Shown one piece after another: positions 1-37,035 of a DNA stretch of 63,304 bases. The stretch comes from Hydrogenobacter sp. GTDB taxonomy: Bacteria; Aquificota; Aquificia; Aquificales; Aquificaceae. Within the stretch, counting starts at the first letter, position 1; each line of letters begins with the position of its first letter. Position numbers and translations under genes: made by a program. Below the pieces are notes generated by a model. It had not been told where the DNA came from. It made no database searches and was given only the letters and a program-made list of their open reading frames with translations. The DNA lies in NCBI GenBank assembly GCA_028276405.1, contig JAPYWJ010000006.1, positions 1 to 63,304 on the forward strand, given 5' to 3'.

Positions 1-573
1 AGAAACCCGGAGGGTGTTTGGTATAACCGCATAATGTCCTACGAGGTGGGAGACTTTCCAGATACGCAGGTTTTCCATCTTCCCAAGTCTTGCCTACATT
101 GTCAGGATGCCCCCTGTGTGCCCGTTTGCCCCACCGGTGCCAGCTACAAGAGAGAACAGGATGGCATAGTGCTTGTCAATTACGACGATTGCATAGGTTG
201 TAAGCTCTGCTCTTGGTCTTGCCCTTATGGTTGTAGAGAGTTTGACGAGGCGGACAAGGTGATGAAAAAATGCACCCTGTGTATTGATAGGATATACGAC
301 GAGTCTTTGCCACCGGAACACAGAAAGCCCGCCTGCGTGCTAACATGCCCTGCAAAGGCAAGGTTCTTTGGAGACATAGAGGATCCAAACAGCGAAGCCT
401 ACAAGATGATAAAGGAACGCAACGGCTTTGTGCTATTCCCAGATATGGGCACAAACCCAGCCAACCATTACCTGCCAAGGACCGAGACCAAAGTCCATGT
501 GGATGAACATCTTTTAGAAGCAGAAAACCCACTTTTCCTTGAAGTGGTTAGAAGACATTACAAAGGAGGTTGA
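1..573 (+). CDS. 4Fe-4S electron-transfer subunit, DmsB/SoeB type (5' partial)
   Basis: The frame is open from the first base of the window, so the ATG at 34 is probably internal and the real start lies upstream. The visible part has Cys clusters CLHCQDAPC, CIGCKLCSWSC and CTLC...CVLTC, which carry several [4Fe-4S] centres, as in the DmsB/PhsB/SoeB family. The stretch ARFFGDIEDPNSEA resembles the iron-sulfur subunit of sulfite-oxidizing SoeABC and related complex iron-sulfur molybdoenzymes. The subunit would pass electrons between a molybdopterin catalytic subunit (presumably encoded upstream, outside the window) and the membrane anchor that follows 3 bp downstream. The substrate (sulfite, polysulfide, tetrathionate or DMSO) cannot be decided here. 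Confidence 0.88.
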   Translation, partial: RNPEGVWYNRIMSYEVGDFPDTQVFHLPKSCLHCQDAPCVPVCPTGASYKREQDGIVLVNYDDCIGCKLCSWSCPYGCREFDEADKVMKKCTLCIDRIYDESLPPEHRKPACVLTCPAKARFFGDIEDPNSEAYKMIKERNGFVLFPDMGTNPANHYLPRTETKVHVDEHLLEAENPLFLEVVRRHYKGG

Positions 574-576
574 AAG

Positions 577-1587
577 ATGCACCCACCACTTTCCTTGATT
601 TGGTTTTTTTTGACTGCGGGGACTTCCATAGGACTTTTCACGCTTACCTACTTGGCGGAGCTTTTGTCTCTCTTTGGCTTTGATACATCTCTTCCCCGGA
701 ACATGGTCTTATTTTCGGTAGTGTTCTCCCTGATCCTTGTAGGTTTAGGAGCTGTAGGTGCAAGCTTTCATCTTGGACACAAAATGAGAGCTTGGAAAGC
801 CATAAAGAGATTTCATACATCTTGGCTTTCCCGTGAAGCGGTCTTTAGCGGAGCTTACGGCTTTACTTTGTTCCTTTATGGCATTTCCTATTATTTTGGC
901 TTTAATGCTTTCTTTGTTCATTTATTTGGGATATTTACCTTTATCCTTGGGTGGCTTTCTGCCTTTTCTACTGCCATGATATACGCTTCCAACAGGTTTG
1001 TGCTTGAATGGAACACATCCTTGACGGTAATTTACTATCTTAACATGTATCTTATGCTGGGATCTTCTGCTTTTCTTGCCACTACTTACCATTACAAGCC
1101 TGAGCTTGTAAAGCCCTTCCTTCTACTTACTCTCTTCTTTGTGCTTCTTGGACTTGCCTTTAGGATAGCCTTTAACATAAGGCAGTTTTTCTTAAAAAGA
1201 CCTACCCTGAATGAGGCTCTAAACTTACCACACAACAGACCCATAAAAGTCCTTGATACAGGTACAACTACCAATAACTACTGTACAGAAGAGTTCTACT
1301 ACGCAAAAGGTAGAGAAATGCTAAACTTTGTAATTCCTATTTTTTATGTGATCACCTTTTTTGTTCCTATCTTTTTGCTTTCTTATTCCCTTATAAAAGG
1401 AAGCACATCTTACAGTTTTTATGCACTCACCTATGCCAGCTTAGTAATAGGTAGTGCCTTAGAAAGGTGGTCTTTCTTTGTGGAAGGCAATCATGTGCAA
1501 AACCTCTTTTACGGACTGTATCCAAAAGAGGGATACACCCTCAGAAAGGGCTATATGGAAAAAAAGAAAACCAAGATAAGTATATAA
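577..1587 (+). CDS. DmsC/SoeC-type membrane anchor subunit
   Basis: This 336-residue, very hydrophobic protein has about eight predicted membrane helices and starts after AAAGGAGG inside the end of the preceding iron-sulfur gene. Length, topology and neighbour match the DmsC-like anchor family, which binds or exchanges electrons with quinones in complex iron-sulfur molybdoenzymes. The C-terminus is a basic tail (MEKKKTKISI). Its TAA stop at 1585-1587 runs into the first base of an inverted repeat, so an element boundary lies exactly at the gene end and may have trimmed the original C-terminus. Family is confident; exact enzyme is inference. Confidence 0.8.
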   Translation: MHPPLSLIWFFLTAGTSIGLFTLTYLAELLSLFGFDTSLPRNMVLFSVVFSLILVGLGAVGASFHLGHKMRAWKAIKRFHTSWLSREAVFSGAYGFTLFLYGISYYFGFNAFFVHLFGIFTFILGWLSAFSTAMIYASNRFVLEWNTSLTVIYYLNMYLMLGSSAFLATTYHYKPELVKPFLLLTLFFVLLGLAFRIAFNIRQFFLKRPTLNEALNLPHNRPIKVLDTGTTTNNYCTEEFYYAKGREMLNFVIPIFYVITFFVPIFLLSYSLIKGSTSYSFYALTYASLVIGSALERWSFFVEGNHVQNLFYGLYPKEGYTLRKGYMEKKKTKISI

Positions 1588-1607
1588 CGCTGAGTGAGAA
1601 ATCAAGC
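1587..1607 (+). repeat. Left-type terminal inverted repeat of mini-element
   Basis: ACGCTGAGTGAGAAATCAAG(C) starts on the last base of the preceding stop codon. It matches the repeat at 2852-2872 and, inverted, those at 2911-2930 and 36266-36285. Read outward on the minus strand it gives TTGATT followed 15 nt later by TATACT, a promoter-like spacing aimed antisense into the anchor gene. Confidence 0.75.
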
Positions 1608-1724
1608 ACATAGCTGAACTTTGATATTTCTGTAGAAACTGTAACCTACTGCATAAGCATACAAGTAAGTGAGCAAGGTGATACCCTTTCTCCATCCGCT
1701 CACGTCAACTTTGGATATAAAGAT

Positions 1725-1780
1725 ACTACAAGCAATAGAAGAGATACTAAACAGAGTTTTTAAGTGGTACAGCTTTCCTG
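1725..1780 (+). repeat. 56-bp repeat, copy 1
   Basis: This stretch matches 36152-36207 at 51 of 56 positions. Both copies can be read as the C-terminus LQAIEEILNRVFK, so they may be remnants of the same lost coding sequence inside a mobile element. The rest of 1608-1849 has no convincing gene; it holds only this repeat and the hairpin at 1801-1827. Confidence 0.8.
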
Positions 1781-1849: not shown

Positions 1850-2812
1850 TCAGGGAGATGTGAGGATGGTGCCGTTTTGCCCCACCGCCACGAAGAGTCC
1901 GTTTCCGTAAGTCACGCCGTAGAGGTCGTTGGTCGTCGGCGAGGTGCGTAAGGTCCAGTTTACCCCATTCGGGGAGGTGAGGATGGTGCCGTTTTGCCCC
2001 ACCGCCACGAAGAGGCCATTCCCGTAGGTCACGCGGTTGAGGCTGTTACCCGTCGGCGAGGTTTGCCGCGTCCAGTTCACCCCGTCCGAAGATGTGAGGA
2101 TGGTGCCGTTTTGCCCCACCGCCACGAAGAGTCCGTTTCCGTAAGTCACGCCGTAGAGGTCGTTGGTCGTCGGCGAGGTGCGTAAGGTCCAGTTTACCCC
2201 ATTCGGGGAGGTGAGGATGGTACCGCTATGCCCCACCGCCACGAAGAGGCCATTCCCGTAGGTCACGCCCCCAAGCCAGCTGCTTATCGGCGAAGTCTGC
2301 TTCGTCCAAGTCACCGCGCCGTCCGAGGAGGTGAGGATGGTGCCGTTTTCCCCCACCGCCACGAAGGTGCGGCTCCCGTCGTAGGTCACGCCGTAGAGGA
2401 TGTTGCTCCCCAAGGCCCACAGTATCCAGGTAGTTCCGTTCGGGGAGGTGAGGATGGTGCCGTTTTCCCCCACCGCCACGAAGGTGCGGCTCCCGTCGTA
2501 GGTCACGCCGTAGAGGATGTTGCTCCCTGAGGTACGCAGCGTCCAGTTCACCCCGTTCGGGGAGGTGAGGATAGTACTGCTATGCCCCACCGCCACGAAG
2601 AGGCCATTCCCGTAGGTCACGCCGTAGAGGTTGTTGCCCGTTCCAGAGGTGCGTAAGGTCCAGGTAGTGCCCGCCCCGCCTCCACTACCTCCACTGCCAC
2701 CATCGCCGCTACCTCCACCTCCACCACCACCGCTACCTCCACCTCCACCACCACCGCATGCGGTTAGGAAAGCACTTAGGACCAGTAAGGCGAGAATAAA
2801 AACTTTTCTCAT
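1850..2812 (-). CDS. Repeat lipoprotein, seven-repeat beta-propeller-like
   Basis: This 320-residue protein begins with a lipoprotein signal (MRKVFILALLVLSAFLTAC, lipobox LTAC), then a Gly/Ser-only linker of about 28 residues. Seven repeats of about 39 residues follow, each reading W-(T)-x-Q/R-T-S ... LYGVTYGNGLFVAVG ... GTILTS. The repeats resemble the BNR/Ycf48-type blades found in extracellular propellers; seven copies would close one propeller. It is predicted to be lipid-anchored in the envelope; ligand and function are unknown. The start is set by AAGGAGG seven nt upstream. The gene is visibly richer in GC than its neighbours, and two repeat units are identical over 132 bp (1856-1987 and 2090-2221), pointing to recent internal duplication or acquisition. 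It lies between halves of a mini-element. Confidence 0.8.
   Translation of the reverse strand: MRKVFILALLVLSAFLTACGGGGGGGSGGGGGGGSGDGGSGGSGGGAGTTWTLRTSGTGNNLYGVTYGNGLFVAVGHSSTILTSPNGVNWTLRTSGSNILYGVTYDGSRTFVAVGENGTILTSPNGTTWILWALGSNILYGVTYDGSRTFVAVGENGTILTSSDGAVTWTKQTSPISSWLGGVTYGNGLFVAVGHSGTILTSPNGVNWTLRTSPTTNDLYGVTYGNGLFVAVGQNGTILTSSDGVNWTRQTSPTGNSLNRVTYGNGLFVAVGQNGTILTSPNGVNWTLRTSPTTNDLYGVTYGNGLFVAVGQNGTILTSP
1856..2221 (-). repeat. Internal tandem repeats, including a 132-bp perfect copy
   Basis: Bases 1856-1987 are identical to 2090-2221, an offset of 234 bp, equal to two 39-codon units. Perfect third positions imply a very recent duplication or gene conversion. Confidence 0.85.
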
Positions 2813-2842: not shown

Positions 2843-2870
2843 ATTATATACACGCTGAGTGAAAAATCAA
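2843..2870 (-). promoter_or_regulatory. Promoter of the repeat lipoprotein, -35 inside the element end
   Basis: Minus strand TTGATT (2870-2865), a 16-nt spacer and TATAAT (2848-2843). The -35 hexamer belongs to the left inverted repeat of the mini-element at 2852-2930. Confidence 0.65.
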
Positions 2871-2930
2871 GCAAAGAAGGTAGCTATTTACTACCAAACC
2901 TTAGCTTTAAGCTAATTTCTCACCCAGCGT
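2852..2930. mobile_element. 79-bp MITE-like element with terminal inverted repeats
   Basis: The left end 2852-2872 and right end 2911-2930 form an imperfect inverted repeat starting ACGCTG and ending CAGCGT. An internal hairpin (GGTAG...CTACC) sits in between. The last 43 bp (2888-2930) match 36243-36285 at 40 of 43 positions. No transposase is encoded. It separates the divergent lipoprotein and ffh genes. Confidence 0.65.
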
Positions 2931-2934
2931 ATGC

Positions 2935-2940
2935 TATAAT
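2935..2940 (+). promoter_or_regulatory. -10 box of ffh, leaderless spacing
   Basis: TATAAT lies 8 nt before the ffh ATG, so transcription should begin at or next to the start codon. A TAATTT 16 nt upstream, inside the right end of the mini-element, could serve as the -35. Confidence 0.6.
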
Positions 2941-2948
2941 TAAATATT

Positions 2949-4259
2949 ATGTTTGAGCTGCTTATAGAAAAGTTTAACAAAAGCTTGTCTAAGCTCAGTG
3001 GCACAAGAAAGCTTACAGAAAAGCAAGTTAACGATGTCCTAAGGGAAATAAGAACCGCCCTTTTGGAAGCAGATGTGGATTACGATGTTGTAAAAGCTTT
3101 TCTCAAAAGGGTAAGGGAGAGGGTACTTACCGAGGATCTTAAAAAGAACATATCACCCGCTGACAGCATAGTACTTACTGTATACGAAGAGCTAACTAAC
3201 ATACTGGGTGGAGAGAAAGCTGATATAAAGAAGGGGGTCGTGCTTTTTGTGGGTTTGCAAGGTACGGGTAAAACCACCACAATAGGTAAATTGGCAAACT
3301 TCCTAAAAAGCAAGGGTTTTAAGGTAGCAGTTGCTTCAACAGATGTAAGAAGACCTGCGGCCATGCTACAGCTTGAGAGGCTTGCAGAAAAAGTTGGTGT
3401 TCCCTATTACAGCTTTGATGAAAGCTCACCCGTAAGTATAGCTGTCAAGGCAAAGGAAAGGGCTTTAAGGGAGGGAATGGATTATCTGCTTCTTGATACA
3501 GCCGGAAGATTACATGTGGACGAAGAGCTTATGCTAGAACTTAAGCAAATAAAGGAAAAGGTAAACCCTTCTGAGGTGCTCTATGTTGCTGACGCTATGC
3601 AAGGACAGGAAGCCTTGCGTGTTGCAAAAGTCTTCCACGAAAGTGTTTCGCTTACCGGAGTTATCCTTACCAAGATGGATGGAGACGCAAGGGGTGGAGT
3701 GGCTCTCTCTGTAAAGTCCGCTATAGGTGTGCCCATAAAGTTCGTAGGCGTTGGAGAAAAGATAGAAGATTTAGAAGCCTTCTATCCTGACAGGGTAGCT
3801 CAGAGAATATTAGGTCTAGGAGACATTCAGAGCCTTGCAGAAAAGGTTCAGCAAGTTATACCAGAAGATGAAGCTCAGGTGCTTGCTACAAAGATCATGA
3901 GGGGAGAGTTTGACCTTGAAGACATGCTCAAGCAGATAAGGTTTATAAAGAACATGGGACCTTTAGACAAACTTCTTGGTATGTTGCCGGGAATAGGGGC
4001 TCAGCTAAAAAATGTGAAGATAGACGAAAAGAAGTTTAAGAAAACAGAAGCCATAATCCTATCCATGACAAAAGAGGAAAGAAAAAATCCCAAGATCATA
4101 AACATGAGCAGGAAGGTGAGAATAGCTAAAGGTAGCGGTACAACTGTGGGAGATGTGAACAAGGTTTTAAAGGAGTATGAAGAAATGAAGAAGGCTATAA
4201 AGAGTATGAGGGGGCTACTGTCTGGCGGTTCCCTACCCAAATTACCCTTTAAGTTTTAA
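2949..4259 (+). CDS. ffh: Signal recognition particle GTPase Ffh
   Basis: This 436-residue protein is full length. It has the N domain at 1-90, the G1 loop GLQGTGKTT at 102-110, DTAGRLHVDE and TKMDGDARGG in the G domain, and a Met-rich M domain from about 300 (KNMGPLDKLLGMLPG, then a basic RNA-binding helix around RKVRIAKGSG). It binds SRP RNA and signal sequences and delivers ribosomes to FtsY at the membrane. There is no Shine-Dalgarno sequence; the ATG follows TATAAT by 8 nt. It converges on dnaA. Confidence 0.97.
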   Translation: MFELLIEKFNKSLSKLSGTRKLTEKQVNDVLREIRTALLEADVDYDVVKAFLKRVRERVLTEDLKKNISPADSIVLTVYEELTNILGGEKADIKKGVVLFVGLQGTGKTTTIGKLANFLKSKGFKVAVASTDVRRPAAMLQLERLAEKVGVPYYSFDESSPVSIAVKAKERALREGMDYLLLDTAGRLHVDEELMLELKQIKEKVNPSEVLYVADAMQGQEALRVAKVFHESVSLTGVILTKMDGDARGGVALSVKSAIGVPIKFVGVGEKIEDLEAFYPDRVAQRILGLGDIQSLAEKVQQVIPEDEAQVLATKIMRGEFDLEDMLKQIRFIKNMGPLDKLLGMLPGIGAQLKNVKIDEKKFKKTEAIILSMTKEERKNPKIINMSRKVRIAKGSGTTVGDVNKVLKEYEEMKKAIKSMRGLLSGGSLPKLPFKF

Positions 4260-35940: not shown

Positions 35941-36165
35941 ATGTCGTCAATGGATTTTTCTACTCTAAGCTTGCGGGGAATTTTTATAATTTTGCAAGTC
36001 AGCAGGGATGGAAATATAAAGCTGAATGAAAAAGGAGATATTGATGGACCTGGAACTATTGTGGGAGTTGGAAATGTAAATTTTCAGGCAGTGGAAAATT
36101 TGGCTAAAGAGAAGATGCCAACTTTTGGCATCCATGGACTGTACTGGTTATATTACAAGCAATAG
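35941..36165 (+). pseudogene. Possible gene remnant before the second mini-element end
   Basis: An open frame of 74 codons (NIKLNEKGDIDGPGTIVGVG in the middle) starts right after the terminator without a ribosome site. Its end overlaps the 56-bp repeat, where a different frame reads LQAIEEILNRVFK as at 1725-1780. This looks like a broken or rearranged sequence. The remaining part of the 409-bp gap (36208-36315) holds only the mini-element end and a promoter. Confidence 0.3.
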
Positions 36166-36207
36166 AAGAAATACTAAACAGAGTTTTTAAGTGACACAGA
36201 TTTCCTG
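36152..36207 (+). repeat. 56-bp repeat, copy 2
   Basis: Matches 1725-1780 at 51 of 56 positions. It lies 35 bp before the conserved right end of the mini-element. Confidence 0.8.
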
Positions 36208-36242
36208 TAAGCCTCATTATCCTCCCTCCCTCAGCAGGTTTT

Positions 36243-36285
36243 TTATTACCAAACTTTAGCTTTAAACTAATTTCTCACCCAGCGT
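36243..36285 (+). repeat. Mini-element right end, copy 2
   Basis: Matches 2888-2930 at 40 of 43 positions, including the terminal inverted repeat ending CACCCAGCGT. It ends 17 bp before the -10 box of the following gene, just as the copy at 2930 lies next to the ffh promoter. Confidence 0.8.
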
Positions 36286-36302
36286 ATAAAAGAATAAGTA
36301 TA

Positions 36303-36315: not shown

Positions 36316-37035
36316 ATGAAAAGAGTGCTCATGACGGGTGTAAGAAGGATAGGGTTTAACATCGCCAAGAAACTTATAGACAATGGATACAAAGTAGCCT
36401 TCGTTTACCGTACATACACTCAAGCAGTAGAAGAGCTCTTAAAGGAAAATGCCTTTGGCATTGAAGGGGATCTGTCAGACCCTAATGGCTACCTAAAGGT
36501 AGTAGAGAAGGCTGTGGATTACTTAAATGGAATAGATGCTTTTATACACGGTGCAAGCCCTTATTTCTCTACACCCATAGAGTCTTTAAAAAGAGATGAG
36601 CTGTATGCACACTTTGTTCCAAACACAGAAGCTTTCCTGTTTCTCTGTAAGCTTCTTTACCCGTACATGCTTCAGAATTCTGGTGATCCTAAAGGTAGGA
36701 TAGTAGCCTTTGGAGATTGGGCTGCTGACACAACACCATACAGGTATTACTCTGCATATTTTATCTCAAAAGGAGCTCTTCATACTGCAGTAAGGGTTTT
36801 GGCAAAGGAGTTTGCACCCTATGTGTTAGTTAACGCCATAGCTCTGGGACCCACACTAAAGCCAGACGACTTTCCTGATGAAAAGTGGGAAGAGTATATA
36901 AAAAAAACTCCTCTTAAGAGGTCAGTTTCCTTAAAGGATGTGGTGGAGCTTACCGAGTTCTTACTTAATGCCCAAAGTATAACTGGGGAAGTTATAAACT
37001 TAGATAGTGGGAGGCACATATCCGGTGAGTGCTAG
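36316..37035 (+). CDS. SDR family oxidoreductase (pteridine-reductase-like)
   Basis: A 239-residue short-chain dehydrogenase. The N-terminal cofactor loop is MTGVRRIGFNIAKKLIDNGY; the active site has Tyr and Lys in YRYYSAYFISKGAL. FolM/PTR1-type pteridine reductases have a similar TGxxxRIG loop, so a role in pteridine or folate reduction is possible, but fatty-acid-type reductases are not excluded. Its stop lies inside the start region of the QueC-like gene. Confidence 0.82.
   Translation: MKRVLMTGVRRIGFNIAKKLIDNGYKVAFVYRTYTQAVEELLKENAFGIEGDLSDPNGYLKVVEKAVDYLNGIDAFIHGASPYFSTPIESLKRDELYAHFVPNTEAFLFLCKLLYPYMLQNSGDPKGRIVAFGDWAADTTPYRYYSAYFISKGALHTAVRVLAKEFAPYVLVNAIALGPTLKPDDFPDEKWEEYIKKTPLKRSVSLKDVVELTEFLLNAQSITGEVINLDSGRHISGEC

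What the first reader, a model, noticed from the sequence alone, without database searches (positions are those of the whole stretch)
2852..2930. 79-bp mini-element whose ends supply promoter -35 boxes to both neighbours
Near-identical inverted ends (ACGCTG...CAGCGT) face outward. Leftward, TTGATT in the element lies 16 nt from the TATAAT of the lipoprotein gene; rightward, TAATTT lies 16 nt from the TATAAT of ffh. A tiny non-coding element may thus act as a bidirectional promoter cassette controlling an essential gene (ffh).
Basis: partly seen in the sequence, partly recalled or inferred. Interest (0 to 1): 0.62.

Follow-up and report, generated by a model that had tools for sequence, protein, structure and literature searches.

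The report
Mini-transposon from promoter-inserting IS family
The 79-bp block beside the essential gene ffh is a shrunken, transposase-less copy of a mobile element of hot-spring bacteria (Aquificales); full copies of that element insert at promoters and duplicate 23-38 bp of target, unusually long for their nearest known family, so neighbouring genes usually keep the core of their own promoter.

Summary
The element is real. 2852-2930 is a MITE made of both ends of an IS982-like insertion sequence: 14 end copies in its own genome, 0 with the reversed control pattern. It is absent from the ffh locus of three of four congeners. In two of them homology stops exactly at its outer edge.

The -35 claim holds on one side only. 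Leftward, TTGATT-16-TATAAT scores 10/12. Rightward, TAATTT matches TTGACA at 1 of 6 positions; ffh keeps the extended -10 (TGCTATAAT) that congeners have without the element.

The larger finding concerns the family. Full IS copies (959-966 bp, DDE transposase) make target duplications of 23-38 bp (23 elements in register), against 2-10 bp recorded for IS982. The duplicated segments start and end at AT and are enriched for TATAAT. An outward exact -10 hexamer lies 7-11 bp from 27 of 125 distinct element flanks (shuffles 4.3 +/- 2.1), placing the conserved terminal TTCTCA (4/6 of TTGACA) where a -35 belongs. In congener G004 similar ends carry a restriction-modification gene pair into ffh's own promoter.

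Long-duplication, promoter-centred insertion is a new variant of a known kind. Promoter activity, and whether targeting or selection sets the geometry, are untested.

The parts
2852..2930 (+). 79-bp MITE: left end from the right end of the parent IS, right end from its left end, no ORF
2852..2867 (+). left terminal inverted repeat ACGCTGAGTGAAAAAT
2915..2930 (-). right terminal inverted repeat ACGCTGGGTGAGAAAT (read on the - strand)
2879..2895 (.). internal hairpin GGTAG-CTATTTA-CTACC
2931..2950 (+). retained target copy ATGCTATAATTAAATATTAT; equals the miaA-ffh intergenic segment of G001 and G002 bar one base
2932..2940 (+). native extended -10 of ffh, TGCTATAAT
   Evidence: sequence; same in G001 and G002
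2843..2870 (-). possible hybrid promoter of the lipoprotein gene: TTGATT (element) - 16 - TATAAT (flank)
1850..2812 (-). glycine-rich, beta-propeller-like putative lipoprotein gene; not found in G001-G004
1587..1700 (+). related IS remnant: terminal repeat 1587-1602 and a C-terminal transposase fragment at 1626-1700 on the - strand
36242..36287 (+). solitary right half of a related element, upstream of the gene that starts near 36318

Best explanation
The 79-bp block is a MITE, an IS internally deleted down to its two ends. Its parent is a DDE-transposase insertion sequence of Aquificales related to the IS982 family. This family inserts at promoters in short AT-rich intergenic stretches. The two strand-transfer points lie 23-38 bp apart and both prefer C^AT on the attacked strand, so the -10 box, and often the sequence up to a start codon, is duplicated on both sides. 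Neighbouring genes therefore keep the core of their promoter, while the -35 position on the element side is filled by the element's conserved end (TTCTCA, 4/6 of TTGACA, usually 16-18 bp away). At ffh the element entered the roughly 21-bp divergent miaA-ffh intergenic region. A later rearrangement separated miaA from ffh and put the lipoprotein gene on the left. ffh is probably still driven by its own extended -10. Shown: repeat family, IS parent, long duplications, position of -10 boxes, homology edges. Inferred: the transposition steps, that the -35 substitution works, and the order of events at ffh.
For: Dispersed end copies. 129-bp and 79-bp elements are stepwise internal deletions of IS ends. 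IS with transposase between the same ends. In-register duplications of 23-38 bp in 23 elements, while mismatched flank pairs reach that score in only 3 of 3906 cases, all reciprocal swaps. AT begins 92 of 126 flanks. Exact TATAAT 7-11 bp from 27 of 125 flanks against 4.3 +/- 2.1 in shuffles; 37 ends with TTYTCA-16..18-(>=5/6 TATAAT). ffh: homology with G001/G002 starts exactly at the element's edge, and miaA elsewhere keeps 17 of the 21 bp. Independent insertion in the ffh promoter of G004.
Against: The window copy has no intact duplicate on its left. The miaA copy of the segment is not bordered by an element end. No intact transposase remains in the host genome. Promoter-centred position could reflect survival of harmless insertions rather than targeting. 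ffh itself lacks the TTCTCA spacing. No expression data.
Confidence: 0.75

Rival explanations
1. Bidirectional promoter cassette: the element's ends act as -35 boxes driving both neighbours, and ffh expression depends on it.
For: TTGATT-16-TATAAT on the left; family-wide geometry with -10 boxes near the ends; hybrid promoters are known for IS982 members such as ISAba825 and IS1187 (PMC7335449).
Against: TAATTT matches TTGACA at 1 of 6; ffh has a native extended -10 present without the element in G001/G002; at C50 the insertion removed the native TTGATA -35 of the right-hand gene.
Confidence: 0.12
2. Survivorship instead of targeting: the transposase duplicates long AT-rich targets anywhere, and only insertions that leave promoters intact are kept, so the -10 alignment is a by-product of selection in compact genomes.
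For: Sequence alone cannot separate the two. Targets are 84% A+T. ATG edges open a long reading frame in only 8 of 22 cases against 19% of control ATGs.
Against: The -10 boxes cluster 7-11 bp from ends more tightly than survival alone requires; duplication lengths are narrow (23-38 bp).
Confidence: 0.45
3. An ordinary operator or RNA structure conserved at ffh.
For: Terminal repeats pair into a stable fold (z -4.2).
Against: Not at ffh in G001-G003; dispersed copies elsewhere; IS parent with the same ends.
Confidence: 0.02

Closest known systems
IS982 family (review PMC7335449)
   Same: Ends begin with AC, length near 960 bp, one DDE transposase of about 280 aa, best NCBIfam model IS982; members known to form hybrid promoters.
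   Different: Duplications 23-38 bp instead of 2-10; scores 21-48 bits against a cut-off of 130; distinct end sequence.
IS1549 and IS1634 (IS1634 family; PMC2266710)
   Same: Long, variable-length target duplications (8-514 bp reported) with no mechanistic model.
   Different: Conserved ends begin with C, elements 1500-2000 bp, other transposase family; no reported relation to -10 boxes in the passages read.
Correia elements and other promoter-bearing MITEs (PMC10969869)
   Same: Short non-autonomous elements upstream of genes that can add promoter parts.
   Different: Different sequence; Correia elements carry promoters of their own, whereas here the host -10 is kept and duplicated.

Membership tests
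MITE | Short, terminal inverted repeats, no transposase gene | tested here: met
   79 bp, 16-bp repeats 14/16, no ORF listed
MITE | Derived from the ends of an autonomous IS | tested here: met
   129-bp C19 element equals 106 bp of the C23 IS end plus a right end; 79 bp is a further deletion
MITE | Target duplication around this copy | tested here: inconclusive
   No intact duplicate left and right; a copy of the 21-bp target remains at miaA on C6; other short copies in G063 and G036 do have 24 and 32 bp repeats
IS982 family | Ends with 5'-AC, 845-1282 bp, one transposase | tested here: met
   959-966 bp, AC ends
IS982 family | Curated NCBIfam IS982 score | tested here: not met
   21-48 bits against 130
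IS982 family | Direct repeats of 2-10 bp | tested here: not met
   23-38 bp in 23 elements against the table of PMC7335449
IS1634 family | Long variable duplications (two reported members) | tested here: met
IS1634 family | Length 1500-2000 bp, ends beginning with C | tested here: not met
   959-966 bp, AC ends
Hybrid-promoter-forming IS | Measured transcription from element -35 plus host -10 | not testable with these tools
   Only the geometry was measured

The most novel reading that the evidence does not exclude
A group of insertion sequences that integrates specifically at active promoters, perhaps by recognising the melted or polymerase-bound -10 region. Its two strand transfers are 23-38 bp apart, so the promoter is copied and the host gene keeps working while the element's end takes the -35 position: a built-in way to be harmless, or to tune genes, in very compact genomes.
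Probability: 0.35. Interest if true: 0.8.

Novelty: new variant of a known kind. Interest (0 to 1): 0.6.

Why it matters
IS982-type elements are recorded with 2-10 bp duplications, and no mechanism had been proposed (as of PMC2266710) for the long duplications of IS1549/IS1634. A family with regular 23-38 bp duplications, intact copies in complete genomes and a preferred distance to -10 boxes makes both questions testable: how two strand transfers come to lie roughly three turns of the helix apart, and whether an IS can target promoters. It also suggests how compact genomes tolerate insertions next to essential genes such as ffh, and offers recombination between copies as a likely source of rearrangement.

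Tried and rejected
Rfam scan of the window: no match. Operator reading: rejected because the block is not at ffh in relatives. Search for an intact duplicate around the window copy: none, so a TSD is not claimed there. Start codons at duplication edges: 22 of 46 edges form ATG, but only 8 of 22 open frames of 50 codons or more against 19% of control ATGs, so start-codon targeting is not claimed beyond the AT^G preference. Remnant of ffh upstream of miaA on C6: weak, probably chance. Sequence search of the transposase against solved structures: no relative. Plasmid and phage collections: no transposase match. The promoter of the lipoprotein gene could not be compared because congeners lack the gene.

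Full report
Observation. The inverted ends at 2852-2867 and 2915-2930 are real (14 of 16 complementary). The left 22 bp occurs twice in the window where shuffles give none, and the 21-bp end pattern occurs at 14 places in the host genome with up to three mismatches, against 0 for the reversed pattern. A BLAST of the element finds related short elements at C54, C50, C13, C53 and C19 and single ends elsewhere. The end pattern also occurs in all four congeners searched and in several more distant Aquificales.

What it is. A single end at 1587 in the window is joined to a transposase C-terminal fragment (1626-1700), and the end at C23:22751 to an N-terminal fragment. The 129-bp element on C19 is 106 bp identical to the C23 IS end plus a short right end, and the 79-bp element is a further internal deletion of it. 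The element is therefore a MITE of that IS. The host genome holds only broken transposase pieces. An intact relative in G003 is 959 bp with a 276-aa transposase. The transposase is a DDE enzyme: Pfam DDE_Tnp_1 reaches its cut-off for one relative (24.9 against 23), and invariant acidic residues that fit the triad are present (D109, D210, E235 in the alignment; the assignment is by inspection). NCBIfam IS982 is the best model but at 21-48 bits against 130. The family was found in 20 of 112 genomes of the order and, with a stricter E-value, in 16 of 136 of the phylum, all within the order.

The ffh site. In G001 and G002, ffh is divergent from miaA, with C^ATGCTATAATTTAAATATTAT^G between and including parts of the two start codons. 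In the window the homology begins exactly at that AT, directly outside the element. miaA has moved to contig C6 and still carries 17 of the 21 bp with one 4-bp gap. Both genes thus kept the whole intergenic segment, which is what an insertion with a ~21-bp duplication followed by rearrangement would leave. The C6 copy is not bordered by an element end, so this history is inferred. G003 has no element at ffh. In G004 an independent insertion of a 1690-bp cassette with terminal repeats of the same family, carrying a BsaWI-type endonuclease gene and a DNA methylase gene but no transposase, sits in the ffh promoter. ATACTATTAATTATAATT(T)CAGAT lies on both sides, starting at the AT of the ffh start codon.

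Long target duplications. Flanks of 63 paired elements were compared. Twenty-three have in-register direct repeats of 23-38 bp, many perfect. Among 3,906 mismatched flank pairs only 3 reach the same score, and these are reciprocal swaps (L137/L138, L202/L209); a fourth swap (L172/L214) appears in inverted orientation. So copies of the element have recombined with one another. Non-autonomous elements show the same repeats (209 bp in G063, 174 bp in G036). IS982 members are recorded with 2-10 bp (PMC7335449). IS1549 and IS1634 have 8-514 bp with no mechanism proposed at that time (PMC2266710).

Relation to promoters. Duplicated targets are 84% A+T against 64% in the flanks. Exact TATAAT occurs in 14 of 27 against 6.7 in shuffles (1 of 300 as high), and target centres lie in naive ORFs of 100 codons or more in 11 of 23 cases against 84% of surrounding sequence. 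Of 126 flanks, 92 begin with AT. Reading outward, exact TATAAT lies 7-11 bp from the end at 27 of 125 distinct flanks (shuffles 4.3 +/- 2.1, maximum 13 in 500), and boxes of 5/6 or better at 56 (23.3 +/- 3.9). At this distance the conserved terminal TTTCTCAC puts TTCTCA, 4/6 of TTGACA, 15-19 bp upstream of the -10; 37 ends show TTYTCA-16..18-(at least 5/6 TATAAT). One G003 copy is in the promoter of tRNA-Val. Whether the geometry reflects targeting or survival is not decided by sequence.

Leftward TTGATT-16-TATAAT is a good match. Rightward TAATTT is not a -35, the TTCTCA distance is 12 bp, and ffh has a conserved extended -10. At the C50 copy the left gene has TTCTCA-17-TATAAT where G002 has TTGGCT-18-TATAAT by eye, an equal match, while the arsR-like gene on the right lost TTGATA. 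Insertion therefore exchanges -35 regions, with an effect that has to be measured.

Rearrangement. In the host genome the C50 element joins two segments that lie apart in G002 and G001, with homology reaching the element edge on both sides; the C53 and 1587 edges are equally sharp on the side that could be compared.

Noticed in passing
L120 10194-11883 (G004:C1:223194-224883): A restriction endonuclease (BsaWI-type, PF18643) and DNA methylase gene pair between terminal repeats of this family without a transposase, inserted in the ffh promoter: a possible cargo-carrying non-autonomous element.
   Followed up: partly
L137 1894-2818 and L138 1895-2760 (G070); L202/L209 and L172/L214 (G063): Pairs of IS copies with reciprocally exchanged flanks, pointing to recombination between copies (or an assembly join in the MAG; G063 is a single contig).
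   Followed up: partly
window 1720-1765 and 36150-36210: A second shared sequence (ACAAGCAATAGAAGARATACTAAACAGAGTTTTTAAGTG) lies beside both solitary ends of this family; possibly a remnant of another transposase.
   Followed up: no
window 1850-2812: Repeat-rich, glycine-rich beta-propeller-like putative lipoprotein gene, high in G+C against its surroundings and not found in G001-G004; possibly acquired.
   Followed up: partly
L234 938-989 (G023:C81): A 52-bp element that is little more than two facing terminal repeats, in a genome with 22 end matches and no transposase match.
   Followed up: no
L139 near 1480 (G000:C6, between proS and miaA): Sequence beyond the retained target copy resembles the start of ffh of G002 weakly (3.5% of shuffles as good; not with G000 or G001).
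   Followed up: yes
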